This document shows, piece after piece, positions 10,826-51,861 of a stretch of 64,000 bases of DNA. Numbering within the stretch: the stretch's first letter is position 1; each line of letters starts with the position of its first letter. This DNA is from Luteolibacter luteus (GTDB lineage Bacteria > Verrucomicrobiota > Verrucomicrobiia > Verrucomicrobiales > Akkermansiaceae). The position numbers were made by a program, and so were the translations under genes. Location of the stretch: the NCBI RefSeq assembly GCF_012913485.1, contig NZ_CP051774.1, forward strand, positions 3,968,001 through 4,032,000. Direction: 5' to 3'. Below the pieces are notes generated by a model, which was not told the origin of the DNA, made no database searches, and saw only the letters and a list, made by a program, of their open reading frames with translations.

Positions 10826-11441
10826 GCGGCTTTGTCGGAGCTTCTAACAAAGCAGGCGAGGAAGGATGGAATAAACGGGTCAGGGCAGGGTCTTATCCGC
10901 AGGTTCCAATTCAAGGTGGTGCGCGTGAATCGAGGACACGGTTTGCTATAATTCATCTCCCCCGATAGGGTTATTTAAAGCCTTCGGATGTCTGTTATTT
11001 GTATGACAGCGACAGCGGGGTGGCGAAATCATCAGGGTAATATGCGGCAGTATTGTCCGAAATAAGTTTGGATGTAGGGTGAGTGTAATTCTGATTTTGA
11101 GGGGCAATTTCTTTACTTTGAGCATATAAGGAAGATTTGCTGGAATTTCAGTTAACGTGGGAAGCGGCGGAAAGATACAAATGGCAGGTTAGTGGATACA
11201 AGCCGCTGAAGACGGCTGACTTAGGATGGAAGAGATCCTTCCTCCGTTCTGCACGGACCCAAACATGCCAGCGGCGGGAGCGATCAAGAACCCGAAATCA
11301 CTCCGTCGAAAACCCAATCGCGCCGGTTCTGGATCTCCCTGCCAGAACAATCCCGCAACCGCTCCCGTTAGATATCGGACAGCGGTGTCGTGGCCCGGTG
11401 GTGTTGCCGTTTTCGGCTTCCTCAACCCCAATACACGATCC
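10826..11441. promoter_or_regulatory. long AT-richer leader of the autotransporter-repeat gene
   Basis: About 600 bp with no credible gene. It contains a TATAAT hexamer at 10947-10952, the string TTGTCCGAAATAA near 11055 (a near copy, TTGTCCGAATAA, lies upstream of the 17498 gene) and the decamer GGATACAAGC at 11194-11203. An open frame reaches back to 11226, but its residues lack a signal peptide, so I treat that part as leader. Confidence 0.45.
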
Positions 11442-14400
11442 GTGAAGCCCACTGTATTTCATAGTCGCCGCAACCTTCTGGAGACCGCGCTGGGTCTCGG
11501 TTGCGTCCTCGCTTCCACTGCCTCCGTCTCCCAAGCGGCCTCGCTCTACTGGGATGGCACCAATGCGGGATGGGAAGCGGTCGCCAACTGGTCCACCGTG
11601 GCCGAGGCTACCACGCCCGATCCGGCAGCCATTCCCGGTGCCGCCGATGATGTGATTTTCAACATCGATCCTGTCGATGCCGCGGTCACCGTGGGTTTGA
11701 ATGGAGCCCAGTCCGCAAATTCGCTAACCTTCAACAACACCGGTACGACCTCGCTCCAAGGCGGTGGTGCCAACCGGACGCTCGCCATTGGCGCGGGTGG
11801 TATCGTGATGGATGCGGCTGCCGGTGCGGCCACCATCGGTTCGGGCACGGCAAATCAGAACGTCGCGGTCTCGCTCACCGCTACGCAGACGTGGACCAAC
11901 AATTCGACGACTGCAGCCCTGTCGATCGCGAACCCCTTTACTGCTGGTGCGGGCATCGGCCTGACTAAGGCAGGCGCAGGGGATGTGGCGATGACGAATG
12001 CGCTGAACACGACGAACATCGGCGGGGTGCTCAACGTGCAGGCAGGACGCTTGCTGATGTCGGGTGATATCACCGCGGGCGGCCTCACCGGGGCGGGAAC
12101 ATTGGCCGTTGCCGGTGCGGCTTCGAAGTGGTTCTTCGTGAACAATCCCGCTGACAGCGATTTCTCGGGCAGCCTCCAGAACGCCAGCGCCACGGTGCGT
12201 CTCGGTCTGGTGAAGCGTGGAATCGGTACACTGACGCTGAGCGGGACCAATACGCTGGGTGACAACCTCGGTGTGGAGAACGGCCTCATCAAGATCACCG
12301 GGTCGACCACCGCGGGTGTCGGAGGAGCGAATGGCACTGCTTCCGTGGGAACTGTCGGCAACCAGAACGGGCGCATCTTGATTGACGGCGGGACCTTGGC
12401 TGCCACCAAGAACACCAGCCCCTCCGTGGCGATTGCCACGGCAGCGAACTCGCAGGGATTCCTGAAGATGACCACGGGGTCGATCACGACCACCAGCGAG
12501 TTCCACATCGGCCGGGGACAGACCGGATCGTTCTCGGCCTACACCCAAACCGGCGGAACCTTGACCTCCGGCAACTGGCTAGTGGTGGGTCTGAACAATG
12601 ACCGCGCGGTGCTGAACCAAAGTGGCGGCTCCATTACCGTGAGCACCAACCGTATGACCATCGGCGCCGGTGGTAATGCCTCGATCGGTGTGGCGAACCT
12701 CAGCGGAGGCACTTTCACGTCGGTCGCTGGCACCAACACCGGCGTTTTCGTCGGCGAAAACGGCACTGGCACCCTTAATGTAAGCGGCACGGCGAATGTC
12801 AGCCTGGCCACGAACGGCGGAGCGACGAGCGGCACGCTGCAGTTTGGGGGCAATGCCGTTTCCCTAGCGGGCAATGTCAACCTGCTGGGTGGCAGCATCA
12901 GTGCCTTTGCCGTCACGAAGGGAGCCTCCACCGCGGGTGCGGTCTACCGGATGAACTTCAACGGCGGCACGCTCAAGGCCGCGATGGCGAATCCGGGTTT
13001 CTTCGCGGACCTCGCAAATACCGAAGCCTACGTCTATGGCGGAGGCGGCACCGTGGATAACGGCGGTAACGCGATCACGATTTCCGAGCCCTTGCTGGCA
13101 CCGGTAGGGAATGGCGTGAGCGCCACCGGACTGACGGTGAGTGGCGGCGGCTATCAGGATACGCCTCTGGTCACCATTACCGGTGGCGGTGGAACCGGCG
13201 CCACCGCGGTGGCGACGATCGATGCCAGTGGTAACCTCACCGGCATCGAGATCACCAACCCCGGCATCAACTATATTAGTGCTCCGACCTTCGCGCTGCT
13301 CGGCGGCGGGGTGGGAAATACCGGTGCTCTGGGTGGTGCCGCGACGCTAGTTCCGAATGCCAGTGGAGGCATGACCTTCACGGGTGCTGGCGCAACCCGT
13401 GTGGGTGGCACCAATACCTTTACCGGGCCGATTGCGGTGAACCAAGGCAAGCTGGGGATTGCCCAGACACTGGTGAATGCGGTGTCCGTGGCTTCCGGAG
13501 CGACGCTCGAAGTCTGGGATCCGATCGGGTCTCCTTCCATCCTTGAAGTTCCGACCCTCAACCTGGCGAATGGATCGCGCGTGGATCTCGATGTCTCCGC
13601 GTTCAGCGGCCTCAACGACACGATCACGGTTAGCAATGTTTCGGGCCTGACCCTCGGAACGGCTTCGATCGGTCTCTACGATGACGGCACTACGAACGCG
13701 CTTACCACCGCCGGGGTCTATACGCTTTTCAACTACAGCGGGACGCTGAATGGCGGCACTGCCGGACTCACCGTGGCGAATCCGGTGAGCGGCTACAATT
13801 ATGCGTTCAGCGCAGTCTCCGGGCAGGTGAAGGTCACGATCACCTTCACGGATACCGATGGCGACTTGATGCCGGATATTTGGGAGACGGCAAACGGCTT
13901 GAACCCTAACGATCCGAGCGATGCGACCGGCACGATCACCTATCCGCCGACGCCTTCGCCCTTCAACACCGACGGCGATTTCACGACCAACTTGGAGGAA
14001 TTCCAGGCAGGCACGAATCCTAACAGCGCCACTTCCGACGGCTTCAATACAGACAACGACCTGCTGCTCGACAGCTGGGAGGTTTCCAACTTCGGAAACA
14101 TCACCGCACGTGACGGCACGGGCGATTATGACGGGGATCTCGCCACCGATGCCGCGGAGTTCTACGCCTCCACCAACGTGAAGGGTGCGAGCCCGCTGTC
14201 GGCTGCCGATTGGCCGGACGCGGACCTCGACCAGCTCAACGATGCGTGGGAGGTAACGCACTTCACGAATATCACCGCCAAGGATGGCAGCGCGGACTCC
14301 GATGGCGACGGTTTCTCCGACTTGCAGGAGTTCCAGGCGCTCTCGAATCCCGGTGACGCGGCTTGGACGCCGGCGAAGGCGCAGATCATCCACCGCTGGG

Positions 14401-22706: not shown

Positions 22707-25700
22707 ATGAATCGATTCTCTCGCGTTTTTCAGTCTCTGCCCGGGTTTGCTCTCAAGGCGAGCTTGGCGGCGGCCTGTGCTGGCGCAGTCATTCCGAAAG
22801 CGGGGGCCGATCTGGTCCACCGCTGGTCCTTCACCCACGTGGTTGGAAATGCGCCGGATGGAACTAGCCTGACCGATTCGGTCTCGGGCGCGGTGGCAAC
22901 GGTGCAGGGGAACTTCTCCGCCTTTGATGGGACGCAACTGATTCTTCAGGGCCCGGCTGGAGAGAATACCACCGTGGGAAATCGCTCGGCGAATTTCATT
23001 TCAGGTTACGTCGATCTGCCGAACGGGATCATCTCCTCGAAGACGAATCTCTCGGTCGAAATCTGGGCCACTCCGCTCTCGATCCGCACTTATCAACGCC
23101 TGTTCGATTTCGGGCGTGTAACCGGCGCAGGTTTGGGTGGTGCCACCGGAGAGGTGGTCGATGTGGTTGGGACCACACCGGGAAATACCACGGCATCGGA
23201 CAACCTGATGCTCTCCTTCTGCCGGGGGGACAATCTGGACCAGCAGCGTCTGGAAGCAGTTCTGGATGGCGGTAGCGCGGCTACGGTGGACACCGGGGAG
23301 GTGACGGACGCGGGCACCCAGTATCACTACGTCATGACCTTCGAGGATGGCGCAGGAGCCTTTGGGGCTGCCGGTGGCCGGATGACTTGGTATCGCAACG
23401 GCATCCAAGTCGGTTCCGGTGACGTGGCTTTCCATCTTTCCCAACTGGAAGACGTCAACAACTGGCTGGGGCGCTCGCAGTGGGGAGCCGACCGCAATAG
23501 CCACGCGGCTTACAATGAGGTCCGCATTTACAACCACGTCCTGAGCTCGGCGGAGATCGCGACAAATCTCGCAGCGGGTCCAGATGTCATCGGCACACCG
23601 CCGGAGCCCGAACCGGCACCGGTTCCGGACCATCTTTGGGTGTTCAATGATGCGGCGGATTCCACGGTTTCGCCGGGACTCTCGTTCACGGATAGTGTGG
23701 GTGGCATGGTTGCGACCCTTCGCGGAAATGGCGCGACCCTCACCGGCACTTCCCTGCGCCTACCCGGCTCTAGCAATGGCGACCAAGCCGCTTCCACCAT
23801 CTCCGCTTATCTGGATCTTCCGAACGGGCTCATCTCCGCGCAGCCCAGCATTACGCTCGAAGCATGGGTCACCCCGCTTTCTTCGAAAGCCTACCAGCGG
23901 CTCTTCGATTTCGGTCGCACCAATATCACCAGGGGCACGGGAGCGGCACCCGGAGAGATCATTGATGGCAGCGGTGCGCCAGGTGCCTTTGGCGGCTATG
24001 ACAACTTCGTGCTCTCGCTGAATGTCGCGAACAATCTCGGGACGCACCGTTTGGAGGGGCAGATCAACAACGGAGAAGCGATCTTCACCGATTCCACGGC
24101 GGCGACTGCCACGGGCACGCAGTATCATTACGTCCTGGTGCTTCAAGATGGCGCGGGAACTTACGGCGCAAACGGTTCTCAGATCCGGTGGTATCGCAAT
24201 GGGGTCCTCCAGAACACCCTCAGTCTCGCCTTCCATCTGTCCCAGATGCAGGACGTGAACAACTGGATCGGGCGGTCCCAGTATTCAGGCGATTCCTGCT
24301 CGAATCTCTCGCTGAACGAATTGCGGATCTACCGGCGCGCGATCACTCCCGGGGAAGTCACGGCGAGCTATCTGGTGGGACCGGATCTGAATTCCGGTCC
24401 GTCCGAGCCCCCGGTGCCGGCGCCTGCCCCCGTGCACCGCTGGTCCTTCGATGGGAATGCCGGTCCGGTGGTTTCTGGCACGTCCTTCCATGACAGCGCT
24501 TCAGGGGAAACGGCAACGCTCATGGGTGCGGGCGGTAGTCTGAATGGCAGTGCTCTGATCCTTCCCGGAACAACCAATGGCAACCAGACCGCCGAGAACA
24601 TCTCGGCTTATCTGAATCTGCCGAACGGCCTGCTCTCGACGAAGAAAAGCGTGACCTTGGAAGCTTGGGTAACGCCGCTGTCCTCGAAAAACTGGCAGCG
24701 CATCTTCGACATCGGCAGCACCAGCCTCACCAGCGGCAGTGGTGCGGTTTCAGGCGAAATCATCGATGGTCCTGCAGCACCGGGTAATTTCGTCGCGGCG
24801 GACAATCTTCTGCTTTCGCTCAACAAAGACGGCGTTCTCGGGAGCCACCGCCTTGAGTCGCGTTTGAACGGTGGTTCGGTCCTTACCGTTGATACGGATC
24901 TCTCCGCTTCGACCGCCGTGGGTACAGAGCATCATTATGTGCTCAGCGTTCAGGATGGAGCCGGGGCGGCGGGGACCTCGGGCTGTCAGGCGAGATGGTA
25001 CCGCGATGGGGAGTTCCAAGGGTCGCTCGACCTGAACTATCGGCTCGCTGACATGAAGGACGTCAACAATTGGATCGGCCGTTCCTTGTGGGCTGCCGAT
25101 ATGAACTCGAACCTCGCACTCAATGAGCTGCGGATTTACTCCCATGCGCTTTCCTTCGGGGAGATCACGTCGAGCTACCTAGCGGGAGCCGCCGCGGTTT
25201 TCCCGGCTCCGGTAACCCAATCGGATTCCGCGACAATCCATGCAGGACAAAAGGTGCGAATCCCAATCTTGGCGAATGACAGTGGCGCGATCAATCCGGG
25301 GTCGCTGGTGATCGTCACGCCTCCCGCTCACGGTACGGCGACGATCGATGATGAGGGGCGGATTCTCTATTCTCATGGTGGAGGATCGCAGGACGACAGT
25401 TTCGCGTACCGCGTGTCCGGCGAAGGCGGGATGTCTCCGGTCACAAACGTTTCGATTTCGGTCAGCAGTGAGCTGCGGATCCCAAGCCCCACGCTGAATG
25501 TCCCCTCGACGCCACCGGCGACGTCGATCCAAGTCGTGCCTGCTTTCCCTGGGGTCGGCTTCACCAAGGCGCTGTGCTTCGCTTCGCCTCCGGGTGATAC
25601 GAAGCGGCTCTTCGTTTGCGAGCTGGGTGGCAAGCTGAAGGTCATCCCGGATGTGACGTCGGCCACGCCGAGTTCTTCGGAAGTGCTTGATATGCTTTCT

Positions 25701-28118
25701 GTCATCGCGAATCCGGCGCGCACGCCCGCGGAAACGATTACGCCCGGACCAGACGGAGAGTGCGGCTTGCTCGGCATCGCGTTCCACCCCGACTTCGCCA
25801 GCAACGGCTACTTTTATGTGACCTACTCGGTCGTAAAGTCCGGCTCGAGCGGCTGGTTCCAGCGCCTCTCGCGCTTCACGGTTCCGCCCGCCCAGATCGC
25901 CGCTGCCAATCCGGTGGCGGATCCCGCTTCCGAATTAATCCTCATCGAGCAGGCCGACCGCGAGGACAACCACAATGGTGGCGACCTGCATTTCGGCGCG
26001 GATGGCTACCTCTACTACTCCGTGGGCGACGAGGCCAACGCCAACGACAAATACGTCAATAGCCAGGACATCGATAAGAACATCTTCTCTGCGATGCTCC
26101 GCATCGATGTGGACAAGAAATCCGGCAACCTGGAACCGAATCCCCATGTTTCAGTGCCCACGGATGCGGGTCTCGCCCGCTATTCCGTGCCTGCGGACAA
26201 TCCCTACGTGGGAGCCACCACCTTCAATGGCCTGCCGGTCAATCCGGCAGCGGTGCGAACCGAGTTCTGGGCCGTCGGGTTGCGAAGCCCTTGGCGCTTC
26301 TCCTTCGATCCCCCCACCGGCGAGCTCTGGCTTGGTGATGTGGGTCAGGATCAGTATGAAGAGGTCGATCTGATCGTGAAGGGCGGCAATTACGGCTGGG
26401 TCTACCGTGAAGGCCTGCACAATACCAATTTCAGCAACCCGGTACCGCCCGCGAAGCCTGCCGGCTTTACCTCGATCGATCCGATCTACGAGTACGTCCA
26501 TAATGGCATGGCGGGCGATTCCAACTACAAGGGGAACTCTGTGATCGGCGGCGTGGTATATCGCGGGTCCCGGATTCCCAGCCTCTACGGTGCCTACATC
26601 TTCGGCGATCAAGTCTCGGGTAACATTTGGTCGCTTACCCGGGAGGGAGGTGTTCCGGGCGGCGCAGTTACAGTGCAACGCATTGGCGGGCAGGCTTTCC
26701 TTTCGAACTTCGGGAAGGATCCTTCGAATGGAGACGTGCTTGTTTCGGACTATTTCGGTGGCCGCATCATGCGCATCGTCTCCTCCACGCCCGATGGAAG
26801 CTTCCCGACCAAGCTGAGCGAGACCGGATTGTTTGCGGATCTCACGGATCTCTCGCCCTCGCCTGGTGTGCTGCCCTATGAGCCAAACCTGACTTTCTGG
26901 AGCGACCACGCCGTGAAGCGCCGCTGGTTCGCGATCCCGGACCTTCCCGGAAAAATGACATGGTCCCGCGATGGGACGTGGAGCTTCCCGGACGGACAGA
27001 TCTGGGTGAAACACTTCGACCTTGAAACGGAGGGTGGCAATCCGGCCTCGCCAAAGAAACGGATCGAGACCCGCGTGCTCGTGAAAAATTCCACCGGGAT
27101 GTATGGTGTCAGCTACCGCTGGAACGAGGCCCAGACCGAAGCGACCTTGGCGGCAGACGGGGGTGAAGATTTCCCGGTGAATCTCACGGTGGATGGCCAG
27201 CCGTATTTCCAGCAATGGCGGATTCCCAGCCGGGCTCAGTGCCTCACCTGCCACTCGCCGCAAGCGGGTCATTCGCTGTCCTTTGACACCCGGCAGCTTA
27301 ATTTGGTGAAGAACATCAATGGCTTTCAGGGCAACCAACTCGATCTCCTCAGGGAGGCTGGCTACTTCTCCAATGCTCCGGCCTCCCCCAATCTCCTGCC
27401 GCGGCACCTCAGGCCGGATGAGGCGAGCTATCCTCTGGAGGAGCGGGTTCGTTCTTACCTCGCGGTGAATTGCTCCTACTGCCATGCCGGTACCGGCGGT
27501 TCGGCGCCTGCCTCGTGGGATGGACGCCATCACCTGACGCTGGAGCAAACCGGGCTCATCAACGGCGACGCGAACGCCAACGGGGGAAATGCGCTGAACA
27601 AGCTGATCGTGCCGGGTGACACCACGCATTCGATTATCCTGAATCGCATCGCGGTGACCAATGGCTTCACCCGCATGCCTCCTCTCGGGAGCAATGAGAT
27701 CGATCATGCCAGCGTGGCCATGCTCACCGCTTGGATCAATGGGCCTGCGACCACCCGTCAGACCTACCCTGAATGGAGGCAGGAGTTTTTCGGCGTGTCC
27801 ACCGATGGCGATCCAGCTGCTGATCCGGATGGAGATGGCGCGAGCAATCACGACGAATTCCTCGCGGGTAGCTCTCCCCTGAATGGTGCCAGTGCTCCGG
27901 GATCCAGCATTACCCGCAACGGGTCGAATGTGTCGCTTGGTTTCTCGGTTCCGGAGAACCGCTCGGTGAAAGCCGAGACTTCTCTGGATCTCAGCAACTG
28001 GTCGCTGTGGGACATTCCCGGGAACGATGGAGTTTCGTTGCCTGCCGGTGCCCATTCGCTTGAAGGGAGTTCGCCTGATGCAGCGCGTTATTTCCGTCTC
28101 CGGATCGAAGAACGCTGA
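22707..28118 (+). CDS. secreted triple-LamG / PQQ sugar dehydrogenase / diheme cytochrome c fusion
   Basis: 1803 residues, signal peptide within the first 35. Three tandem LamG units cover about residues 35-305, 306-575 and 576-830. A short Ig/cadherin-like domain (about 830-920; HAGQKVRIPILANDSG) follows. A glucose/sorbosone-dehydrogenase beta-propeller (about 940-1360) carries HNGGDLHFGADGYLYYSVGD and EFWAVGLRSPWRFSFDPPTG, typical of PQQ sugar dehydrogenases. Next is an SO2930-type diheme cytochrome region (TIGR03806-like; about 1370-1690) with heme motifs CLTCH and CSYCH and RMPPLGS, a candidate Met ligand. A TSP3-like loop (DPDGDGASNHDEFLAGSSP) and the shared C-terminal beta module (ETSLDLSNWSLWDIP) close the protein. 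Likely an extracellular or periplasmic sugar oxidase that passes electrons to its own hemes while the LamG domains bind glycan (inference). Confidence 0.88.
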   Translation: MNRFSRVFQSLPGFALKASLAAACAGAVIPKAGADLVHRWSFTHVVGNAPDGTSLTDSVSGAVATVQGNFSAFDGTQLILQGPAGENTTVGNRSANFISGYVDLPNGIISSKTNLSVEIWATPLSIRTYQRLFDFGRVTGAGLGGATGEVVDVVGTTPGNTTASDNLMLSFCRGDNLDQQRLEAVLDGGSAATVDTGEVTDAGTQYHYVMTFEDGAGAFGAAGGRMTWYRNGIQVGSGDVAFHLSQLEDVNNWLGRSQWGADRNSHAAYNEVRIYNHVLSSAEIATNLAAGPDVIGTPPEPEPAPVPDHLWVFNDAADSTVSPGLSFTDSVGGMVATLRGNGATLTGTSLRLPGSSNGDQAASTISAYLDLPNGLISAQPSITLEAWVTPLSSKAYQRLFDFGRTNITRGTGAAPGEIIDGSGAPGAFGGYDNFVLSLNVANNLGTHRLEGQINNGEAIFTDSTAATATGTQYHYVLVLQDGAGTYGANGSQIRWYRNGVLQNTLSLAFHLSQMQDVNNWIGRSQYSGDSCSNLSLNELRIYRRAITPGEVTASYLVGPDLNSGPSEPPVPAPAPVHRWSFDGNAGPVVSGTSFHDSASGETATLMGAGGSLNGSALILPGTTNGNQTAENISAYLNLPNGLLSTKKSVTLEAWVTPLSSKNWQRIFDIGSTSLTSGSGAVSGEIIDGPAAPGNFVAADNLLLSLNKDGVLGSHRLESRLNGGSVLTVDTDLSASTAVGTEHHYVLSVQDGAGAAGTSGCQARWYRDGEFQGSLDLNYRLADMKDVNNWIGRSLWAADMNSNLALNELRIYSHALSFGEITSSYLAGAAAVFPAPVTQSDSATIHAGQKVRIPILANDSGAINPGSLVIVTPPAHGTATIDDEGRILYSHGGGSQDDSFAYRVSGEGGMSPVTNVSISVSSELRIPSPTLNVPSTPPATSIQVVPAFPGVGFTKALCFASPPGDTKRLFVCELGGKLKVIPDVTSATPSSSEVLDMLSVIANPARTPAETITPGPDGECGLLGIAFHPDFASNGYFYVTYSVVKSGSSGWFQRLSRFTVPPAQIAAANPVADPASELILIEQADREDNHNGGDLHFGADGYLYYSVGDEANANDKYVNSQDIDKNIFSAMLRIDVDKKSGNLEPNPHVSVPTDAGLARYSVPADNPYVGATTFNGLPVNPAAVRTEFWAVGLRSPWRFSFDPPTGELWLGDVGQDQYEEVDLIVKGGNYGWVYREGLHNTNFSNPVPPAKPAGFTSIDPIYEYVHNGMAGDSNYKGNSVIGGVVYRGSRIPSLYGAYIFGDQVSGNIWSLTREGGVPGGAVTVQRIGGQAFLSNFGKDPSNGDVLVSDYFGGRIMRIVSSTPDGSFPTKLSETGLFADLTDLSPSPGVLPYEPNLTFWSDHAVKRRWFAIPDLPGKMTWSRDGTWSFPDGQIWVKHFDLETEGGNPASPKKRIETRVLVKNSTGMYGVSYRWNEAQTEATLAADGGEDFPVNLTVDGQPYFQQWRIPSRAQCLTCHSPQAGHSLSFDTRQLNLVKNINGFQGNQLDLLREAGYFSNAPASPNLLPRHLRPDEASYPLEERVRSYLAVNCSYCHAGTGGSAPASWDGRHHLTLEQTGLINGDANANGGNALNKLIVPGDTTHSIILNRIAVTNGFTRMPPLGSNEIDHASVAMLTAWINGPATTRQTYPEWRQEFFGVSTDGDPAADPDGDGASNHDEFLAGSSPLNGASAPGSSITRNGSNVSLGFSVPENRSVKAETSLDLSNWSLWDIPGNDGVSLPAGAHSLEGSSPDAARYFRLRIEER
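22804..25196 (+). repeat. internal triplication of LamG units (about 800 bp each)
   Basis: The units start near 22815, 23625 and 24434. Each contains the forms YLxLPNG(L/I)(I/L)S, EAWVTPLSSK (first copy EIWATPLSIR), GEIIDG (first copy GEVVDV), QDGAG and DVNNW(I/L)GRS, ending in a sentence such as LNELRIYxxA. Copies two and three are closer to each other than to the first. Confidence 0.85.
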
Positions 28119-44028: not shown

Positions 44029-44517
44029 TCAGGCCTTGGTATTCTTGCCGGAGACCGCACGCTCGAGAGCTTCGAGGCGTGCCTTGAGTTCCTCAGCCTC
44101 GGCGATCCGGACGAGCTGGCTGGCGAGGCCGACGAGTTGGGCGGCGGTGTCCGGTGAAATCATTCCGGCGAGCGCCGCGCGAAGGACGGCCTCTGCCATG
44201 GGGTAGGGGCCGGAGTCCGGGGGCAGCTCCACCACAATGGGGGCGGCGGCCGATCTGAGCCGCGGGTGAACGCGTTCCATCACCAGCTTGGCCGCGGACA
44301 CATCTCCGGCCATGGCTTTGCTCACCATGACTTCGGCGATGGAATCGGCGTCCTCCTTCAAGAACAGGGGCGGACCACCCTGAGCGATGCGGGGCCTGCC
44401 ATTGGGATTGCCGGAGCGGCCCGGGAGGAATTGGCCATTTGGCGTGCGAGGGGTTTCAGCGGATCCGGAATTCCGGGCGGCGGTTCCCGATGACGGGAGA
44501 TTTGTTGAACTAGACAT
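44029..44517 (-). CDS. DUF5681 domain protein
   Basis: 162 residues. The N-terminus is polar and disordered, then GQFLPGRSGNPNGRPRIA is the DUF5681 signature (PF18932). A helical region (AEVMVSKAMAGDVSAAKLVM, then AEAVLRAALAGMI) and an end with coiled-coil character (AEELKARLEALERAVS) follow. DUF5681 proteins are widespread near phage packaging genes and mobile islands and may act as DNA-binding adaptors; this is not proven. No integrase, terminase or capsid gene is nearby. Confidence 0.82.
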   Translation of the reverse strand: MSSSTNLPSSGTAARNSGSAETPRTPNGQFLPGRSGNPNGRPRIAQGGPPLFLKEDADSIAEVMVSKAMAGDVSAAKLVMERVHPRLRSAAAPIVVELPPDSGPYPMAEAVLRAALAGMISPDTAAQLVGLASQLVRIAEAEELKARLEALERAVSGKNTKA

Positions 44518-44641: not shown

Positions 44642-45526
44642 ATGAGGTCGCTTGCGTGTCTCAATCGTCTCCACAACGAACTCGACATTCAGTCGTGCTT
44701 CACCAGTCTGCCCTCGAATTACTTCGGAGCTGCCCATGAAGTTGTGTCTACCCCGGCGCTAATTTGCGTCCTATCTTTGCTTTCGGACTCGGCCCTTTCT
44801 CAAGAAAGTGGCGCTCTCCCAATTTCTGAAATTGGGCAAAAGGAGGTTCCCGACATGATCGTGGAAGACAGCGTCGTCCGTGCCCTTGCATCGAGAACGC
44901 TCACCCTTCTTCGCGCACAGCCATCTACTCTGCCTGATCCTGCCGCGGAGCCTGTGGTGAAATCCGCCCCTTCCACCAGAACGGGTGGTGTGGATTTCTC
45001 AAGTTGGCACCGCGCTGCCAGTTATCTCGTAGGTGTGCGTGCGACGGTCTATGACAAGCGGAGAACTTTTCTCCAATGGCAGGATCCGGAGAGCCGCGTC
45101 GAGCACGAGGCGTGGAGCAATATCGATTTCAATCACCTTTCCTCGGTCAGCGATGTCGAGTCTGTTGATAGGAGGTGGATTTTGTTTCTTGTGATCGTGA
45201 ATATTGACACTTCGGTGGTCAATCCTGCTACAGGACAGGCGGTTACGGAACCCACACATCCCCCTATTCCTGAGGATGATGGTCCGAAATTTGTGGTGAC
45301 GAAGGGCGACACCACCGACCCGCGCTCTACAGCGCCCCTTCATGCGCTTCACAAGCTCTACGCGGAGAAGTCGGACGAGTTGATCGCGGCCGCTGAAGTG
45401 CAGAAGCAGACCAGGGAGCAGATGGCGCAGGAAGAAGCAGACCAGAGCCAGCCAAGAGATAATGTCATGTGGTTCCGTCCCAAGAAAGGAAGCCGTTACC
45501 TCCAGCAAGAGGGAGGTGGTCGATGA
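44642..45526 (+). CDS. hypothetical protein, first gene of the unexplained exported-protein chain
   Basis: 294 residues from the ATG at 44642; a start at the GTG at 44744 would place a weak hydrophobic signal (STPALICVLSLLSDSALSQ) at the N-terminus and is as plausible. No family is recognised. The mid part (SSWHRAASYLVGVRATVYDK, RRWILFLVIVNIDTS) is beta-like, and the end is charged (EVQKQTREQMAQEEADQSQP). Its stop overlaps the start of the next gene (ATGA), so the two are translationally coupled. Base composition is more AT-rich than in the flanking housekeeping genes. Confidence 0.65.
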   Translation: MRSLACLNRLHNELDIQSCFTSLPSNYFGAAHEVVSTPALICVLSLLSDSALSQESGALPISEIGQKEVPDMIVEDSVVRALASRTLTLLRAQPSTLPDPAAEPVVKSAPSTRTGGVDFSSWHRAASYLVGVRATVYDKRRTFLQWQDPESRVEHEAWSNIDFNHLSSVSDVESVDRRWILFLVIVNIDTSVVNPATGQAVTEPTHPPIPEDDGPKFVVTKGDTTDPRSTAPLHALHKLYAEKSDELIAAAEVQKQTREQMAQEEADQSQPRDNVMWFRPKKGSRYLQQEGGGR

Positions 45527-47726
45527 GATCGCTCATTCTTGCCTCCACGCTCCTGTGCCAGGTTCTTCACTCGCAGGTGATCCAGCCCCAGCCCCAGCTG
45601 CTGCCTGGGACGGGCGGCACGTGGAACGTCCAATGGCTAGGCATCCAAGGACGTAGCTACTTTCTTCAGGCCTCCGATGATTTGGTGAGCTGGCACTACG
45701 CTCCTCTGATCGAGGCGGGTAATGACGAGATCATCGAGTATGAGACGGGAGCCCTTGGGAGCCGCCATTTCCTCCGTTTGGCCTATGTCAATCAGACGGC
45801 GAGCAATCTCGATACTGCGGATTTTGACGATGACGATCTCGGGAACCTCGCCGAGATCAATGTCCACCACACGGATCCGCTGAAGCAAGACACCGATGAG
45901 GACGGAATGCCTGACGGCTGGGAGATCAACCACGGGCTGGACCCGAATGACAACGGCTCGATCAGTTTCGTGAACGGTCCTTCCGGAGACAAGGACGGCG
46001 ATGGCATCCCAAACATCCAAGAGTTCCAAGGGGGGACCGATCCGGTATCGCCCGGAAGTTTCCCGGTGAGCCTGATCTTTGTAGAAAGGACGGCGAACCA
46101 GAATTTCTCCACTCCTAGCGGGACCCTCCACAAGTGGGCTTCCTGGCTGCCGGAGGAGTCTTCCACGGACACCATCAGCAGCTTCTCAAGCCCCCAAGGC
46201 ATGTCGGGACAGCTTGAAAGTGCCTTCACGTTTCCGGCGCTTCCTCCGACAAAGGCCACGATCTCTCCTATCGGAGGCACGGTTGGGGCGGTAAGTGCCA
46301 ACTACGGTTCGACGGAAAGCGGGGGAGGCAGGTCAGTTCAGGGCCATGTCCAGCATGGACGTTTTTGGCTCAAGGCGACGCCCTTGGATATTGCCAAGGG
46401 AAGAGGGAGCCAGAAGTTCCTGAAGATGGTCGATCGCTATACCGGTCCTTACAGCGGAGGCTCGACACGGGTTGAACGCCTGATCACGGTTGAGAAGCTG
46501 GAAGCCCAAGCAAGCACGGGATATTCCGAACCCTTCGATATCAAGCCCGAGGTGATTACGGGTCCCGGGAACTTTTTTTCGAGCACGATCACTATTTTGA
46601 CCCCGGTGAGTATCAAGCCGGTGGAGGGAATGGCCGGGGTTGTAGGCGATATGGTCCCTAGCAACCAGACCACGGATCCCGAGCTCCATTTCGTAACACC
46701 GAAGAAAACTGTCGAGATCGCGGAGGATTATGTCACTTTCACGGCGACTGGAATTACGGAGCAGCAGATTACGAATGGTGATGCGGAGCAGATTGTGGAA
46801 TGGGATGGAGGGCAGCCGGTTCTTAATGAGCCGTTGAAACGGAAGGTGAGCCGGGCCGTTGCTGATAAAACCCCGATCCGAATCAAGACCCTTGGGAAAT
46901 TCGGCGGGCAAGAAGTCGCGAAAGTCAACGTTTGGGTGATTTGGTGTGATTGCGCTATTGAGGATTATGAGAACGTGGCATTTTTGGTGAACCGTACGCC
47001 GGACATCTTTGAGCCAGCGGGGTCTACCTACGGAGGGATAATGCTTAGGCCTCAAGAGCATTGGAGGTTTCGCTTCAAGATCTCGCCTGCGGAGATGACC
47101 TCGGGAGAGTCGGATCGACCGGATCTGGAGGGACCGAATACGACGCCTGTTCCAGGTGGTTTGAAACAACACATGATGGAGCCGCAGTTTCCTGCGGATC
47201 ATGCTGCCTTGAAGTGGGATGTTTCGAGGAGAGTAGAGTTCACGATACTGAATCCCAATCTTATTCCTAAAGAGAAGTTTCCCGGTTCTTACGTGTTTAA
47301 GAATCAACCGAAGGTGTCGGATCCAGTAGTCTCGTTCCCTCAAAATCCTGTAGAAGGCAATGATGATCCGTCTGGGCAAAACTGGCGTGATGAGGATGAC
47401 AATCCGTACCGTGAGCTGGTGGAGAACGGGCTAAGTCACTCGGTTGGAGAGATTTCGTCCTATGATGGCCCTATCTTTGGTTTCAAGGCAACGATGGGAG
47501 TCGGGGGGCAACCTTGGCTCAGGTTGCAAATTTCCAAGAATTTGCGAGGGTGGAGTTGGAGAGCGAGAACAAGGGCGGCGGAGATAGGACATGGTATAGA
47601 ATCTCCGACTACGTGGAGTGGCATCATGTGATGGCGGCGACGTTCGGAGAGGAGCCTGGCGGTGGTTCTATATGGGCCAATAGCGGTTCAACATTTGGAA
47701 GAGGTAGGTTTGAGGTCCCGGAGTAG
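45523..47726 (+). pseudogene. secreted TSP3-containing protein with a probable frameshift at a G6 tract
   Basis: The ATG at 45523 (GGGAGG just upstream; overlaps the previous stop) opens a signal peptide, MRSLILASTLLCQVLHSQ. Next is a beta module (WNVQWLGIQGRSYFLQASDD, then SRHFLRLAY) like the C-terminal module of the giants upstream, and TSP3 loops (DTDEDGMPDGWEINHGLDPN). The rest is a beta-rich region of unknown family. The frame runs to a stop at 47631, but after GGGGGG (47503-47508) the protein-like reading moves to another frame: NFQEFARVELESENKGGG, WYRISDYVEWHHVMAATFG, ending GRGRFEVPE at 47726, only 7 bp before the next start. Either the deposited sequence or the gene has an indel, or the frame is switched at the G-run. 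The in-frame product would be about 702 residues. Confidence 0.65.
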
Positions 47727-47733
47727 CAATGCG

Positions 47734-48519
47734 ATGAAAGTGATTTTTAGCTGTGTGTTTTTTTCCGTTGCAACCACGGGGATTGGTAACTGTGGGCCAC
47801 TGATGGAGATGAACAACGAAGATCTCGGGAAAGCCCTGAATGGCTGGGATGTTTCCGGTTTCGACGAAAATGTTCTGAAGGAAGAGCTTGAAGGGGATTC
47901 GGCAGCGGCATTCATTGAGAAATGCAAGAGGGACCCTCAACTTCGAAAGTCTCTCTCGGGGCTCTGTCAGCACGTTGAGAGCGACAAGTTGAGGGATGAA
48001 TTGATCCAATACGTTCTGCAAGAGCCGGACGTGTGGCTCGAGGCGAGGAACACCCCAGACTATGGGAAGGCCGCTGCAATGCAGGCTATGGTCTTTGTTG
48101 AAAAGACACTCCGCAAGGAGTTCGATCTGGATCATGGTGACATGTCGTCCCTGTGTGCTGCTGTGATGGACCGAAATGGGAGGGGGCAAATTTTGAAGCT
48201 TGTTGATCGGCTGGTCCTTTTGCCTAAGGAGCAGCGAAGGAGGGGCGATCCGGAGATGGAAGCCTTGGTGGCCAATCTTTGGAAGGTCGGAGCAGGGTTC
48301 GACATCAGCAGCGCAGAGAGCAACGTGGATTCTAGGCCCCCGAAAACTTATGTCGGGCAGGAAGTGACAGATCGAAAGGATGGTGCTGAAGCCAGACAAG
48401 TGAAGGGAGGAACAGACTCAGGCGGGAGTTCGAGTACTGCCAAGTTCGCTTTCTTGATCCTTGCAACGGTCGCTGCCGGGATTGCGGCCTTCTTTGCTTT
48501 TGGCAGAAAAAATAGGTGA
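47734..48519 (+). CDS. exported protein with C-terminal membrane anchor (member A)
   Basis: 261 residues from the ATG at 47734. Signal peptide MKVIFSCVFFSVATTGIGNC; the helical domain runs to about residue 200 (DLGKALNGWDVSGFDENVLK, VEKTLRKEFDLDHGDMSSLC); a charged and Gly/Ser-rich linker follows (GGTDSGGSSS); the protein ends with one membrane helix (KFAFLILATVAAGIAAFFAF) and the tail GRKNR. This gives a type I topology with the domain outside. I find no known family. The layout matches three further genes downstream. The start lies 7 bp after the shifted stop of the preceding gene, and its stop overlaps the next ATG (TGATG). Confidence 0.75.
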   Translation: MKVIFSCVFFSVATTGIGNCGPLMEMNNEDLGKALNGWDVSGFDENVLKEELEGDSAAAFIEKCKRDPQLRKSLSGLCQHVESDKLRDELIQYVLQEPDVWLEARNTPDYGKAAAMQAMVFVEKTLRKEFDLDHGDMSSLCAAVMDRNGRGQILKLVDRLVLLPKEQRRRGDPEMEALVANLWKVGAGFDISSAESNVDSRPPKTYVGQEVTDRKDGAEARQVKGGTDSGGSSSTAKFAFLILATVAAGIAAFFAFGRKNR

Positions 48520-48620
48520 TGAGAGTTCTTGGGCCAAAGACTTTGTTGGTTGCAGTCTTTCTGCCACTTGTTTCTATTTCCGCGGAAGACCTGCCTGATG
48601 ATTTTTCAGACAGTCTCTAA
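48519..48620 (+). pseudogene. 33-residue stub related to the 49716/50811 paralogues
   Basis: The ATG at 48519 overlaps the preceding stop. The product is a signal peptide (MRVLGPKTLLVAVFLPLVSI) followed by SAEDLPDDFSDSL and a TAA. It matches the first residues of the two later paralogues (MRVLFAAIAVAIARAEELPS and MRILVVVIFLPVAFAEELPG), so it is either the amputated start of a third paralogue or a short secreted peptide. No continuation is seen in any frame after the stop. Confidence 0.6.
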
Positions 48621-48651
48621 GCCTCGATCTTCGATTTTTTGGGTTCGGCCA

Positions 48652-49431
48652 ATGCTTGTCATTGGTTGTATCATTTTTTGCTGTCGATTGGACGGAGCAG
48701 AGTCCGAAGAATTTAGTCAGCTGAGGGTAATCGATGCGGCACGTGAATTGGATCAGTTGGAAGAGCATGCTACGGAGAAATTGAGCTTTGACTCTCCGGG
48801 AGTGAAAGAGGTGGAGGGCTTGATCCGTGAGGATATCAGGAGCAACAGGGGAAGAGGTACCGTTGTGATCCTGAGCGAGTGGGACCCGGGCAGCATGGCT
48901 TGGGAGGTTGCGGCTCAAACGATTCTTTATCGGATGAGCAATTGGGAGGCAGTTCCGATGGAAGAAGGGGAAGTGGTGGGGGAGGTTGATCTCGCGGTGA
49001 TGGTCGATCTCTTCAAAGCCACGATCCGGAAGAATGATAAAAGCGGAGATTACACCCAGAGGAGAGGGCGGATAGGGAGTCCTTACACCTTTCGAAATTT
49101 CTATTCTTCCCATCTTGCTCAAGCGGTGGAGCCCCGTCACGGGTACAGTCCTGATGCCAAGAGGGTTCACGATGATCCGAAGCAATGGCTTGAGGACGAG
49201 ATTCTATCGCGTACCGGTCCTCTGCCCTCGGTGCTGGATGAGCGCGGGGTCAAGTCCGGGGCGGCGGTGAAGACCCGGGCGCCGAAGGGATTACCTGTTC
49301 CAAAAGGTGATGGTCCGGAGGATTTGAAGGGAGAGAAGCCGGCTGGCGGATCGTTTGTCGTGATCGTTGCGGTGTTGTCGGGAGCGCTGGTTGTCGGGGT
49401 GTTTTATTTTAGGAAGGCTTTTTCGAGGTAG
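48652..49431 (+). CDS. exported protein with C-terminal membrane anchor (member B)
   Basis: 259 residues from the ATG at 48652 (MLVIGCIIFCCRLDGAES, a signal peptide); upstream in-frame ATG at 48598 is possible but gives an unusually long N-region. The domain is alpha-rich (RVIDAARELDQLEEHATEKL, WEVAAQTILYRMSNWEAVP), then a basic linker (VKTRAPKGLPVPKGDGPEDL). It ends with GG, a membrane helix (SFVVIVAVLSGALVVGVFYF) and RKAFSR. It has the same architecture as member A and the later paralogues, though the domain sequence is not clearly homologous to theirs. No family recognised. Confidence 0.72.
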   Translation: MLVIGCIIFCCRLDGAESEEFSQLRVIDAARELDQLEEHATEKLSFDSPGVKEVEGLIREDIRSNRGRGTVVILSEWDPGSMAWEVAAQTILYRMSNWEAVPMEEGEVVGEVDLAVMVDLFKATIRKNDKSGDYTQRRGRIGSPYTFRNFYSSHLAQAVEPRHGYSPDAKRVHDDPKQWLEDEILSRTGPLPSVLDERGVKSGAAVKTRAPKGLPVPKGDGPEDLKGEKPAGGSFVVIVAVLSGALVVGVFYFRKAFSR

Positions 49432-49715
49432 GCCTTCGGCAAAGCTTGGGCTTCGTTTCGATGTCCCGTTGCGACATGGGGAGGCATAGAGGGCGGGAGG
49501 ATCAATCGGAGTACGCTTTTTTCGAGAGAGCATGAGGGAGCTGTTCGCTAGTAAGGAGGGCGGTGGGGTGAGAGATGCCGCACCAGCGGTCGGCCGGGGG
49601 CGTCCGACCCTACCTCTGAGCGAGTAAATTCGGGGGGCGAAGGAGAGGTGATGGGAAATGCTTGAAGGTGCCTGGTTACCGGTAGAGACCTTGGGCACTT
49701 GTGAAAGTGGGACTG
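49432..49715. other. intergenic, contains a dispersed repeat copy
   Basis: 284 bp. It holds the 60-bp dispersed repeat (listed separately) and a short leader that is duplicated upstream of the next paralogue (GGCACT then TGAAAGTG). No gene seen. Confidence 0.5.
49559..49618 (+). repeat. dispersed GC-rich repeat, copy 1
   Basis: About 60 bp beginning GGCGGTGGGGTGAG and including GCGGTCGGCCGGGGGCGTCC. A close copy lies at about 53083-53142 and a partial copy at about 51862-51892. Confidence 0.8.
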
Positions 49716-50525
49716 ATGAGGGTTTTGTTCGCAGCGATTGCGGTTGCGATCGCACGCGCCGAAGAGTTGCCAAGTGAGGTTGAAGAGCTTCGTGCGGAAG
49801 CCATTGCATCCATCGACCAAGGTCCCCCATCCGAAGGAGAAGATTTCTTGAAGTTGGCCACTCAGCTAGGAGACTTGGGCGACTATGATTTCCTAGGGGT
49901 ATTGCTTCAACGCGCCATGACTGGGGCCGATCCTGGTCGGGCTCAGATTCTGGTGCGACGGGTGCTGGAGGCTCCAACCGGCACCGAGCTTAAACCTGAC
50001 CTTTCCGAGGCGCTGATCGACTACATTGATTTCTTACTTCGGGATACCAGACCGGGGGATGAAATCGCGACGGGTCGGCGGTTGGTAAGTCATCGCATTG
50101 CAGTGGTCTTGGAGGGCGGCTTGGGAATTTCGAGTTCTGAGTTCGATTACGAGAAGCCTCCAGTGGCGTTAAAATACATCGACGAGGCGAAGCAGGTGAT
50201 TGCGAGGTTGCGACGCGAAGGCGGGGTTTGCCGGATCACCGAGGAGGTGCAGGGAAGCAGGTCACACCACCTTGCGCGAGAATCGATCATTGCGCGGGAT
50301 GAAGCCAGAGCATCCGGTGGACAACGTGAGGAGAGGAGGGATCCGCGGGAGAGAGATAAGCTGTCGCCAGCGAAGGAGATTGGAACGAAAGCCGGGCAGG
50401 AGGAATTGGGAGCGGGGACGAAATGGGGAATCGGGTTTGGTGTGGCGATCCTCGGCGCGTGGTGTCCGCAACGGCCGGGGGCGATGATGGCCTGCGCGGA
50501 GGTCTCGTGGACTCTCGCTGCATGA
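49716..50525 (+). CDS. exported paralogue C, membrane anchor replaced by repeat sequence
   Basis: 269 residues from the ATG at 49716 (the MR(V/I)L start is shared with the other paralogues; an in-frame GTG at 49701 is possible). Signal peptide MRVLFAAIAVAIARA. The helical domain is closely related to the next paralogue: LPSEVEELRAEA, LGDYDFLGVLLQRA, DEIATGRRLVSHRIAVVLE and SEFDYEKPPVALKYIDEAKQ. A charged linker follows. The C-terminal helix begins as in the paralogue (GTKWGIGFGVAILG) but then turns into AWCPQRPGAMMACAEVSWTL, which is encoded by the repeat that starts at 50454. The remainder of the helix and the basic tail are lost, so the product is probably secreted or misplaced. Confidence 0.72.
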   Translation: MRVLFAAIAVAIARAEELPSEVEELRAEAIASIDQGPPSEGEDFLKLATQLGDLGDYDFLGVLLQRAMTGADPGRAQILVRRVLEAPTGTELKPDLSEALIDYIDFLLRDTRPGDEIATGRRLVSHRIAVVLEGGLGISSSEFDYEKPPVALKYIDEAKQVIARLRREGGVCRITEEVQGSRSHHLARESIIARDEARASGGQREERRDPRERDKLSPAKEIGTKAGQEELGAGTKWGIGFGVAILGAWCPQRPGAMMACAEVSWTLAA

Positions 50526-50648
50526 GGCGTCCTTCAGGACGCAGTGATTGGGGCGGGGTCTCCCGGGACTTCGTCCCGGGCTGTTATAAATCGTCCCTTT
50601 GGGACGAGAGAGGCAGGATCACCAATCATCAAACAGTCTGCGCTCCGC
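50454..50648 (+). repeat. about 200-bp repeat element, copy 1 (overlaps the end of paralogue C)
   Basis: Begins GGCGCGTGGTGTCCGCAA and ends CACCAATCATCAAAC followed by a GTCTGC-type stretch. It contains a perfect hairpin, CCCGGGAC (50562-50569) and GTCCCGGG (50573-50580), and the dyad GCGTCCTTCAGGACGC. No transposase; it resembles a small non-autonomous palindromic element. A second copy lies at 51622-51829. Confidence 0.85.
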
Positions 50649-50810
50649 GGAAAGTGCGGGGAGGAGGCTAGGTGATGCGAAAGCAATCAGGCGGGCTGGG
50701 CAAGGGGATCGGTGGGGGCAGATCACCTGTATCGAAGGGGGAGATGATACGGAATGCTTGAGATAGCCAAGCACCGTAAGAAATCGTAGGCACTCCTGAA
50801 AGTGAAAGTG

Positions 50811-51587
50811 ATGCGGATCTTGGTAGTGGTGATTTTCTTGCCGGTTGCCTTTGCGGAGGAATTGCCGGGTGAAGTTGAAGAAGTTAGGTCCGATGCAATT
50901 GAGGTGGTGGAAAATGCTGAGTCTGAGGGTCAAGACTTTTTGCTGTTAGTCGGCAAGCTTGCCAAGGCGGGGGAATATGACTTTCTCGGCACGCTGCTTC
51001 AAAAGGCGACAGAGAATGGCAAGTTCCAGTTTTCTGAGATTCTAGTGATGAAAGTCCTAGAGGCACCGGCAGGCACCGAATTCAAACCTGATCTTGCCGA
51101 GGCGCTGATTGAATACGTTGACTCTGCCCTGCGAAGGTCGAATCTGAGAGATGAAATCGTTACCGGCTTACGAATCGTTAGTCAGCGCATCGCTGTCGTT
51201 CTAGAGAACGGGTTGGATATCCCGAGTTCTGAATTTGACTACGAGCAGCCTCCAGTGGCGTTAAGATACATCGACGATGCGAAACAGGCCATTGCGAGAT
51301 TGAGGCGCGATGGCGGAGTTTGTCGTATTACGCCCGAGGTTGCGGGAGGCAATTCGCATCAACTCGCGCGCGAGTTAATCATCGAGCGGGATGAAGTCAG
51401 AGCTTCTGGTGGACAACGGGAAGAGAGGCGAGGTCCTCCGATGAGAGATAGGGTTCGGCCTGTGAAGGAGAATGGGGGGAAAGAAGTACGAGAGGAGTCG
51501 CCAGTGGGGACGAAATGGGGGATCGGGTTTGGTGTGGCGATCCTCGGGGTGCTGGCAGCGTTTTTTGTTTGGAGAGGGCGAAGATAG
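50811..51587 (+). CDS. exported paralogue D with intact C-terminal anchor
   Basis: 258 residues from the ATG at 50811 (MRILVVVIFLPVAFAEELPG; in-frame GTG at 50802 possible). Closely related to paralogue C through the whole domain (GEYDFLGTLLQKA, DEIVTGLRIVSQRIAVVLEN, SEFDYEQPPVALRYIDDAKQ), with a charged linker (REERRGPPMRDRVRPVKENG). The membrane helix is complete here (WGIGFGVAILGVLAAFFVW) and ends RGRR. About 75 bp of leader are also similar to paralogue C, so the duplication included upstream sequence. Function unknown; type I membrane protein with an external domain. Confidence 0.75.
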   Translation: MRILVVVIFLPVAFAEELPGEVEEVRSDAIEVVENAESEGQDFLLLVGKLAKAGEYDFLGTLLQKATENGKFQFSEILVMKVLEAPAGTEFKPDLAEALIEYVDSALRRSNLRDEIVTGLRIVSQRIAVVLENGLDIPSSEFDYEQPPVALRYIDDAKQAIARLRRDGGVCRITPEVAGGNSHQLARELIIERDEVRASGGQREERRGPPMRDRVRPVKENGGKEVREESPVGTKWGIGFGVAILGVLAAFFVWRGRR

Positions 51588-51621
51588 GGAGAATCGGACG
51601 ATTGATGGGAGGCTCGACCTT

Positions 51622-51829
51622 GGCGCGTGGTGTCCGCAATGGCCGGGGGCGATGATGGCCTGCGCGGAGGTCTCGTGGACTCTCGCTGCATGAGGCGTCC
51701 TTTCAGGACGCGGTGATTGGAGCGGGGTCTCCCGGGACTTCGTCCCGGGATATTATCAATCGTCCCTTTGGGAAGAGAGGGACTGTGTGAGAGGCAGGAT
51801 CACCAATCATCAAACGGTCTGCACTCCGC
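51622..51829 (+). repeat. about 200-bp repeat element, copy 2
   Basis: Nearly identical to the copy at 50454-50648, with about a dozen extra bases before the GAGGCAGGATCACC part. The hairpin is CCCGGGAC (51731-51738) with GTCCCGGG (51742-51749). It starts 35 bp after the stop of paralogue D. Confidence 0.85.
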
Positions 51830-51861
51830 CGAAGAGAGGAAGGAGGAGGGATTGTTTGCAA

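What the first reader, a model, noticed from the sequence alone, without database searches (positions are those of the whole stretch)
44642..51587. Chain of exported, singly anchored proteins without a known family
Five reading frames from 44642 to 49431 are linked by overlaps or tiny gaps (ATGA at 45523, 7 bp before 47734, TGATG at 48519, 31 bp before 48652). Two related genes follow at 49716 and 50811. Four proteins share one plan: signal peptide, helical domain, charged linker, C-terminal helix and basic tail (GRKNR, RKAFSR, RGRR). Base composition is more AT-rich than in the neighbours. This could be a surface-display or envelope complex, with the TSP3 protein as the structural component. 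No established system matches this set, so it is the best candidate for something undescribed.
Basis: partly seen in the sequence, partly recalled or inferred. Interest (0 to 1): 0.75.

Follow-up and report, generated by a model that had tools for sequence, protein, structure and literature searches.

The report
Verrucomicrobial secreted toxin and immunity genes
The chain of exported proteins is most likely a secreted bacterial toxin locus: a recurring two-gene front end, a swappable toxin tail, and a row of membrane-anchored proteins that probably protect the producer.

Summary
The genes are real; the surface-display reading is not supported. Gene A (44642-45526) and the TSP3-bearing front of gene B (45523-47631) recur as a pair: B's front follows A in 34 of 34 testable fetched cassettes and 19 of 20 further loci. 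Behind this front, B's tail and the next gene vary. Tails include RHS, Ntox50, HExxH and alpha/beta-hydrolase types. In one pair of relatives B is 71% identical up to residue 351, then unrelated; the new tail comes with a new downstream gene and the old one is kept behind it. That is polymorphic-toxin behaviour. The window's tail occurs in 13 other loci, each followed at once by a small exported gene; C1 is homologous to several. So C1 is best read as the inner-membrane-anchored, periplasm-facing immunity protein, and C2, D1, D2 (less surely) as orphan or spare ones. Against: A accompanies this tail in only 4 of 8 testable loci; in the window B's end is out of frame, D1 has lost its anchor, and no function was tested.

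The parts
44642..45526 (+). Gene A: exported partner (294 aa as listed; a GTG near 44741 just before the hydrophobic segment is also possible)
   Evidence: Matches in 35 of 144 genomes and 20 of 387 sampled phylum genomes, own genome included in both; followed by the B front in 34 of 34 testable fetched cassettes and 19 of 20 further loci; no usable Pfam, NCBIfam or PDB match; model core residues 73-215 at pLDDT about 80, no fold match
45523..46077 (+). B front end (Bn, residues 1-185): signal peptide, a conserved stretch, TSP3 repeats
   Evidence: TSP3_bac 35 bits, cut-off 25; shared by the A-linked B genes
46078..46644 (+). B middle region, variable between loci
   Evidence: Comparison of B proteins
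46645..47631 (+). B C-terminal module (putative toxin tail), in-frame part: Ig-like domain of about 118 aa, then a conserved region of unknown fold
   Evidence: Homologues in 13 other loci; Ig-like part in the model of L084
47487..47726 (+). End of the C-terminal module lying in a different frame; the listed B ORF is frame-broken relative to its homologues
   Evidence: Conserved residues in another frame; separate profile hit there; stop at 47724-47726
47734..48519 (+). C1: exported, C-terminal helix + GRKNR; putative cognate immunity protein
   Evidence: Three homologues in an array of G015; profile match to genes directly behind the same tail in other loci
48519..48620 (+). 33-codon stub: signal-peptide start only, by eye like the start of a D gene
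   Evidence: similarity to D by eye only
48652..49431 (+). C2: exported, C-terminal helix + RKAFSR; putative orphan immunity protein
   Evidence: Among 144 genomes only in the own one; a second, solitary copy (38% identical) at G000:C1:2910462-2911208
49716..50525 (+). D1: D-family protein, anchor truncated
   Evidence: 63% identical to D2; C-terminus runs into the repeat
50456..50667 (+). Repeat element behind/inside the end of D1 (edges approximate)
   Evidence: Second copy behind D2, 88% identical; two near-full copies in the genome
50811..51587 (+). D2: exported, C-terminal helix + RGRR; putative orphan immunity protein
51620..51849 (+). Second copy of the repeat (edges approximate); D plus repeat looks like a tandem duplication

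Best explanation
The locus is one member of a polymorphic toxin-immunity family of Verrucomicrobia. A and B are exported by signal peptides (predicted). A and the TSP3-bearing front of B form the constant export, assembly or delivery part (inferred). The variable C-terminal tail of B is the toxic or lytic effector, acting in the periplasm or envelope of competing cells (inferred). C1 is the cognate immunity protein, held in the producer's inner membrane by its C-terminal helix with its domain in the periplasm, where the toxin passes (inferred from topology, position and co-conservation). C2, D1 and D2 are further immunity-type genes, left from earlier toxin swaps or kept as spares (weaker inference). 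In the sequenced window the toxin tail is out of frame and D1 has lost its anchor, so the unit is decaying or the sequence carries an error there.
For: Shown: the B front follows A in 34 of 34 testable fetched cassettes (L054 reads N there and was not testable) and in 19 of 20 further loci of the phylum sample. Tails of many kinds behind the same front. Of 30 tails given to Pfam (29 readable; 5 of 35 not given), RHS_repeat passes the cut-off in L051, L060, L061, L080 and L081, Ntox50 (bacterial toxin 50) in L071, DUF900 alpha/beta hydrolase in L075, DUF2515 in L055; L052 reads HELGH and L049 ends in HEIGH. Swap: L050 and L052 B are 71% identical over residues 1-351, then no similarity (against L053: 69% to residue 387); L050 has an extra downstream gene and then L050b, 88% and 70% identical to the next genes of L053 and L052; at DNA level 91% identity stops in B and resumes at the retained gene. 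The window's tail occurs in 13 other loci (one a fragment), 13 of 13 followed at once by a small gene with a hydrophobic start; C1 group against four of those genes: hhalign probability 84, E 7.7e-6, best of 351 pairs. Tail identities to L084 34-51%, partner identities to C1 16-17%. Anchor plan 17/35 against 0/134, Fisher 5e-14; the 35 are not independent. Tandem partner arrays: L059 three, G015 four.
Against: No experiment. The window's own tail matches no known toxin domain and its model is confident only over an Ig-like part. A accompanies this kind of tail in 4 of 8 testable loci (window, L066, L069, and a fragment in L085; none found in L064, L088, L089, L094), so A is not needed for it. 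C2, D1 and D2 have no relative beside any toxin; C2's paralogue stands alone. No Pfam immunity family was hit by 20 partner or array genes scanned; only weak TPR (L129) and weak HEAT (L059) matches below cut-off. 18 of 35 immediate partners lack the anchor plan. Partner family and tail type are not strictly paired. In the window the tail is out of frame, so this copy may not work.
Confidence: 0.75

Rival explanations
1. Surface-display or envelope complex: A, B and the anchored proteins assemble into one structure, with B as the structural component.
For: All are exported; B has TSP3 repeats and an Ig-like domain, common in surface proteins; the genes are close together.
Against: The small proteins do not co-occur with A+B in relatives, and the next gene and the B tail change together in the L050 case while the front stays.
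Confidence: 0.07
2. Secreted enzymes with exported inhibitors that serve feeding or matrix turnover rather than conflict: B tails are hydrolases, and the anchored partners keep them quiet in the producer's periplasm.
For: Several tails look hydrolytic: HExxH, alpha/beta hydrolase, weak transglutaminase; Verrucomicrobia are polymer degraders (general knowledge).
Against: RHS cores and Ntox50 behind the same front, tail swapping with retention of the old partner gene and tandem partner arrays are typical of conflict systems.
Confidence: 0.12
3. A decayed island: an inactive remnant of such a locus, with the repeats and duplications as debris. This is compatible with the best explanation for the family.
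For: B out of frame, D1 truncated, stub between C1 and C2, repeat behind D1 and D2, lower G+C.
Against: A, C1, C2 and D2 are open and intact; immunity genes are expected to outlive their toxin.
Confidence: 0.3
4. The helix plus basic tail is a C-terminal sorting signal for a sortase-like enzyme, not an inner-membrane anchor.
For: Hydrophobic helix and basic tail recall PEP-CTERM-type signals (recalled).
Against: By eye no common motif precedes the helix in C1, C2, D2 or the partners printed; the L130 partner has a lipobox-like start instead.
Confidence: 0.05

Closest known systems
Polymorphic toxin systems (Zhang et al. 2012, PMC3482391; passages seen)
   Same: Constant front, variable C-terminal module, immunity-position gene directly behind, RHS cores and an Ntox50 toxin domain in the family, retained partner genes and tandem arrays ('polyimmunity loci').
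   Different: Front end is gene A plus a TSP3-bearing N-terminus, for which Pfam has only the TSP3 repeat; a term search of the paper's held text finds no thrombospondin or TSP3; many partners are exported membrane-anchored proteins; [quoted passage not shown]
RHS-repeat toxins
   Same: RHS proteins sit behind the same A+Bn front in several loci, including the second copy in the own genome (L060).
   Different: The window's B has no RHS match; in several loci Bn is a separate small gene before the RHS gene.
MtsD, CglD and Amuc_1099 TSP3 proteins (NCBIfam)
   Same: TSP3 repeats give weak hits.
   Different: 15.9-26.9 bits against cut-offs of 50-800; the matched stretches are the repeats only.

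Membership tests
Polymorphic toxin system | Constant N-terminal/trafficking part with variable C-terminal module | tested here: met
   Bn shared, tails differ
Polymorphic toxin system | C-terminal module exchanged between close relatives | tested here: met
   L050 against L052/L053 at protein and DNA level; shown for relatives, not for the window's own B
Polymorphic toxin system | Known toxin domain at the C-terminus | tested here: inconclusive
   Family: Ntox50 in L071 over cut-off. Window tail: no match
Polymorphic toxin system | Immunity-position gene immediately downstream, co-conserved with the module | tested here: met
   13 of 13 other loci with the window's tail have a small exported gene at once behind it; C1 group homologous to four of them
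Polymorphic toxin system | Toxicity and neutralisation | not testable with these tools
   Needs expression and competition assays
Polyimmunity locus | Tandem same-strand immunity genes, closely spaced, without toxin genes between | tested here: inconclusive
   C1, stub, C2, D1, D2 are tandem and same-strand, but C2/D have no immunity relatives and the C2-D1 and D1-D2 gaps are about 285 bp
RHS toxin | RHS/YD repeats in the protein | tested here: not met
   No RHS hit in window B
Type VI secreted effector | T6SS sheath gene in the genome | tested here: not met
   VipB PF05943: none in G000
Type II-type export | Secretin present | tested here: met
   Four secretins over cut-off in G000; that B uses them is not shown
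Anti-phage defence | PADLOC family match | tested here: not met
   No match for six window proteins

The most novel reading that the evidence does not exclude
A plus the TSP3-bearing front of B is an undescribed, dedicated delivery module of Verrucomicrobia: A, for which no relative of known structure was found, pairs with the Bn domain to carry any attached cargo (RHS, nuclease, peptidase, hydrolase) across the outer membrane or into neighbours, and the producers protect themselves with a periplasm-facing, inner-membrane-anchored immunity class that accumulates in arrays.
Probability: 0.3. Interest if true: 0.75.

Novelty: new variant of a known kind. Interest (0 to 1): 0.52.

Why it matters
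It would give Verrucomicrobia, whose secreted or contact antagonism is little described in the papers searched here, a recognisable weapon family with a searchable signature: gene A overlapping a TSP3-fronted B gene. The cut point in B lets anyone read off candidate toxins and their immunity genes.

Tried and rejected
Pfam, NCBIfam and PADLOC on the six window proteins: only TSP3 reaches a cut-off. Pfam on 33 A proteins: two weak single hits, DUF5946 and DUF3593, E 0.006 and 0.008. PDB by sequence: A best E 0.01 over a 37-residue stretch of an unrelated protein, tail nothing. Fold comparison of A: best Foldseek E 1.2, best Z 2.6; no proof of a new fold. Fold comparison of the tail: only the Ig-like part, Z up to 5.8, a common arrangement. 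Plasmids: no A; B only by TSP3. Viral contigs: no window-type tail; A in two IMG/VR contigs, one with a 1750-aa neighbour, one with a lipoprotein-like partner; whether these are viral was not tested. hhalign of C2 and D against the other partner groups: nothing. Pairing of partner families with tail types is not strict: C1-superfamily members also occur behind the L052-type tail by weak phmmer hits. The structural-complex rival was set aside on co-occurrence. Papers: PMC3482391 was seen as passages from two term searches; all others only as search listings and abstract starts; none listed describes this front end. Signal peptides and helices were called by a simple hydropathy script. Rows left out before counting: Pfam scan of tails was given 30 of 35 (not L045, L053, L056, L070, L079), and L054 reads mostly N; one search left out the next genes of L057, L060, L076, L080 (checked, none has the anchor plan) and cassettes cut by contig ends or N; of 62 A matches other than the window's, 33 were fetched; of the 30 loci, nine are genes already in the first set. 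Of the two further partial tail matches, L096 was checked and L097 gave no hit with the profile used there. After the recount I lowered the novel case from 0.35 to 0.3, because A is missing beside half of the testable window-type tails.
Full report
WHAT IS THERE. Six open frames lie on the + strand between 44642 and 51587. I call them A (44642-45526), B (45523-47631), C1 (47734-48519), C2 (48652-49431), D1 (49716-50525) and D2 (50811-51587). All have a hydrophobic segment of signal-peptide kind near the start; in A it begins only after about 30 residues, so its true start may be a later GTG. C1, C2 and D2 end in a hydrophobic helix and a basic tail. G+C is 55% here and 61% in the rest of the window.

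THREE CORRECTIONS. B as listed stops at 47631. In the alignment with six homologues its last conserved stretch (EFAR...WYRISDY...W) is missing in that frame and present in another, which ends at 47724-47726, seven bases before C1; a profile search of the whole genome finds the two pieces separately. Intact copies exist in other genomes. Whether this is a sequencing error or a real lesion cannot be told here. The TGATG at 48517 opens a 33-codon stub. D1 is joined, inside its anchor helix, to a repeat of about 200 bases whose second copy lies behind D2; two near-full copies and one partial match exist in the genome.

A AND THE FRONT OF B ARE A UNIT. A has matches in 35 of 144 genomes (own included), up to seven in one, and in 20 of 387 genomes drawn across the phylum (own included). 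Of the 62 matches besides the window's, 33 were fetched; with the window and L066 this gives 35 cassettes. L054 reads N behind A; in all other 34 the B front lies directly behind A (for L057, L061 and L062 the listed B frame starts inside A, but its front domain begins after A). Fifteen show a four-base overlap by the mechanical start call and the window's own ATGA makes a 16th. Of 30 loci, nine are genes already counted; of the other 21, one (L128) ends with A, one weak partial A (L118) has no B front, and 19 have it, L116 after checking the domain position: 19 of 20. The own genome has a second copy, L060, in which the B front is a gene of 211 aa followed by a 2105-aa RHS protein.

THE REST OF B IS EXCHANGEABLE. 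Complete-looking B proteins range from about 180-230 aa (front only, then a separate large gene) to 3201 aa. Pfam was run on 30 of 35 tails (L054 unreadable). Over cut-off: RHS_repeat in L051, L060, L061, L080, L081; Ntox50 in L071; DUF900 in L075; DUF2515 in L055; TSP3 repeats in several. Below cut-off: RHS in L058, L071, L076; Peptidase_M78 in L059; DUF900 in L057; transglutaminase in L074; DUF4347 in L081; DUF3238 in L076. L052 reads HELGH and L049 ends in HEIGH. Many tails gave nothing.

THE CLEAREST CASE. L050 and L052 (two genomes of the window's genus) have A proteins 95% identical. Their B proteins are 71% identical from residue 1 to 351 and show no similarity after that; against L053 the alignment runs to residue 387 at 69%. 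At DNA level L050 and L053 are 91% identical up to position 3108 of L050, differ to 5392, and are 92% identical again. The retained part is L050b, 88% identical to L053's first downstream gene and 70% to L052's. The differing block holds a new tail and a new downstream gene. So a tail and its next gene came in together and the old next gene was kept. This is how toxin-immunity pairs are exchanged in polymorphic toxin systems (established knowledge; PMC3482391).

THE WINDOW'S TAIL AND ITS PARTNER. The tail is found in 13 other loci: L064, L065, L066 (also L090), L067 (L086), L068 (L087), L069, L085, L088, L089, L093, L094, L095 and, as a fragment, L096. A further weak match, L097, gave no hit with the profile used. 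Named records are MAGs labelled Verrucomicrobiaceae, Akkermansiaceae, Akkermansia, Verrucomicrobia and one Blastochloris. In 7 of 387 phylum genomes, own included, it passes E 1e-5. In all 13 a gene of 151-301 aa (as mechanically called) with a hydrophobic start follows at once; 8 of the first 12, and C1, have the full anchor plan. A accompanies the tail in 4 of 8 loci where it could be seen, window included (L066, L069, and a 76-codon A fragment in L085); none was found in L064, L088, L089 and L094; the other six are cut too short. So this tail also rides on other fronts. C1 has close relatives only in one genome of the genus, three in a four-gene array without an A-B pair in the 19 kb read; the C1 group aligns with four of the partners at hhalign probability 84, E 7.7e-6, the best of 351 group pairs. 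Tails are 34-51% identical to L084's, partners 16-17% to C1, roughly as expected if partners evolve faster.

CONTROL FOR THE ANCHOR PLAN. Seventeen of 35 genes directly behind B show signal-like start, C-terminal helix and basic tail; 0 of 134 other ORFs of 180-420 aa in the same loci do (Fisher 5e-14). Four next genes left out there lack it too, giving 17 of 39. The 35 are not independent, since several are related, and the control ORFs are mechanical.

MECHANISM, SHOWN AND INFERRED. Shown: constant front, swapped tail, co-swapped partner, retained old partner, toxin-type domains in the family. Inferred: Sec export of A and B; passage over the outer membrane, perhaps by one of the four secretin systems, not T6SS (no sheath protein found); the tail acts in the envelope of target cells; C1 guards the producer's periplasm from the inner membrane. 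C2, D1 and D2 are placed as orphan immunity only by position and plan. C2's paralogue stands alone beside what look like acetyl-CoA carboxylase genes (recalled from sequence), and D has no match in the 143 other genomes searched.

STRUCTURE. The tail model (L084 first, 8 rows) is confident only for residues 1-118, an Ig-like domain; most of the rest has pLDDT under 50. The A model (4 rows) has a core of strands and one long helix at pLDDT about 80 between disordered ends and no match in the PDB.

LITERATURE. Zhang et al. 2012 (PMC3482391, passages) define polymorphic toxins and polyimmunity loci; a term search of the held text finds no thrombospondin or TSP3. Searches list no paper on this front end, judged by titles and abstract starts. 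That is a statement about these searches in an open-licence library only.

VERDICT. A new variant of a known kind: a polymorphic toxin-immunity family with an undescribed front end and a membrane-anchored immunity class. The chain in the window is one, probably damaged, member.

Noticed in passing
window 47487-47726: Conserved end of B lies in another frame than the listed ORF; error or lesion not decided.
   Followed up: partly
window 50456-50667 and 51620-51849: Repeat of about 200 bases with short palindromes, two near-full copies in the genome, one fused to the truncated end of D1; a partial third match at G000:C1:5001091.
   Followed up: partly
L054: Readable parts are an A gene and, at the end, a lipoprotein-like gene 43% identical to L130's partner; the stretch between reads N and was left alone.
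   Followed up: no
L130 5103-5669: The partner behind B here has a lipobox-like start instead of a C-terminal helix: another way of anchoring in the periplasm.
   Followed up: no
L063 10454-14368: Four tandem anchored proteins, three C1 homologues and one with a different domain but a similar C-terminal helix and tail, with no A-B pair in the 19 kb read: an orphan array.
   Followed up: partly
L062 6929-7828 and 8221-8745: Two related non-anchored genes in tandem behind a B gene, sharing their C-terminal sequence.
   Followed up: no
L085 6466-6696: A 76-codon fragment of A directly before an intact window-type B gene: A may be decaying here too.
   Followed up: no
window 11226-16598 and 22707-28118: Two very large ORFs (1790 and 1803 aa), one with TSP3 repeats, one with laminin-G-like, Ig, GSDH and weak cytochrome-c matches; not linked to A.
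   Followed up: no
window 44029-44517, minus strand: DUF5681 protein next to gene A.
   Followed up: no
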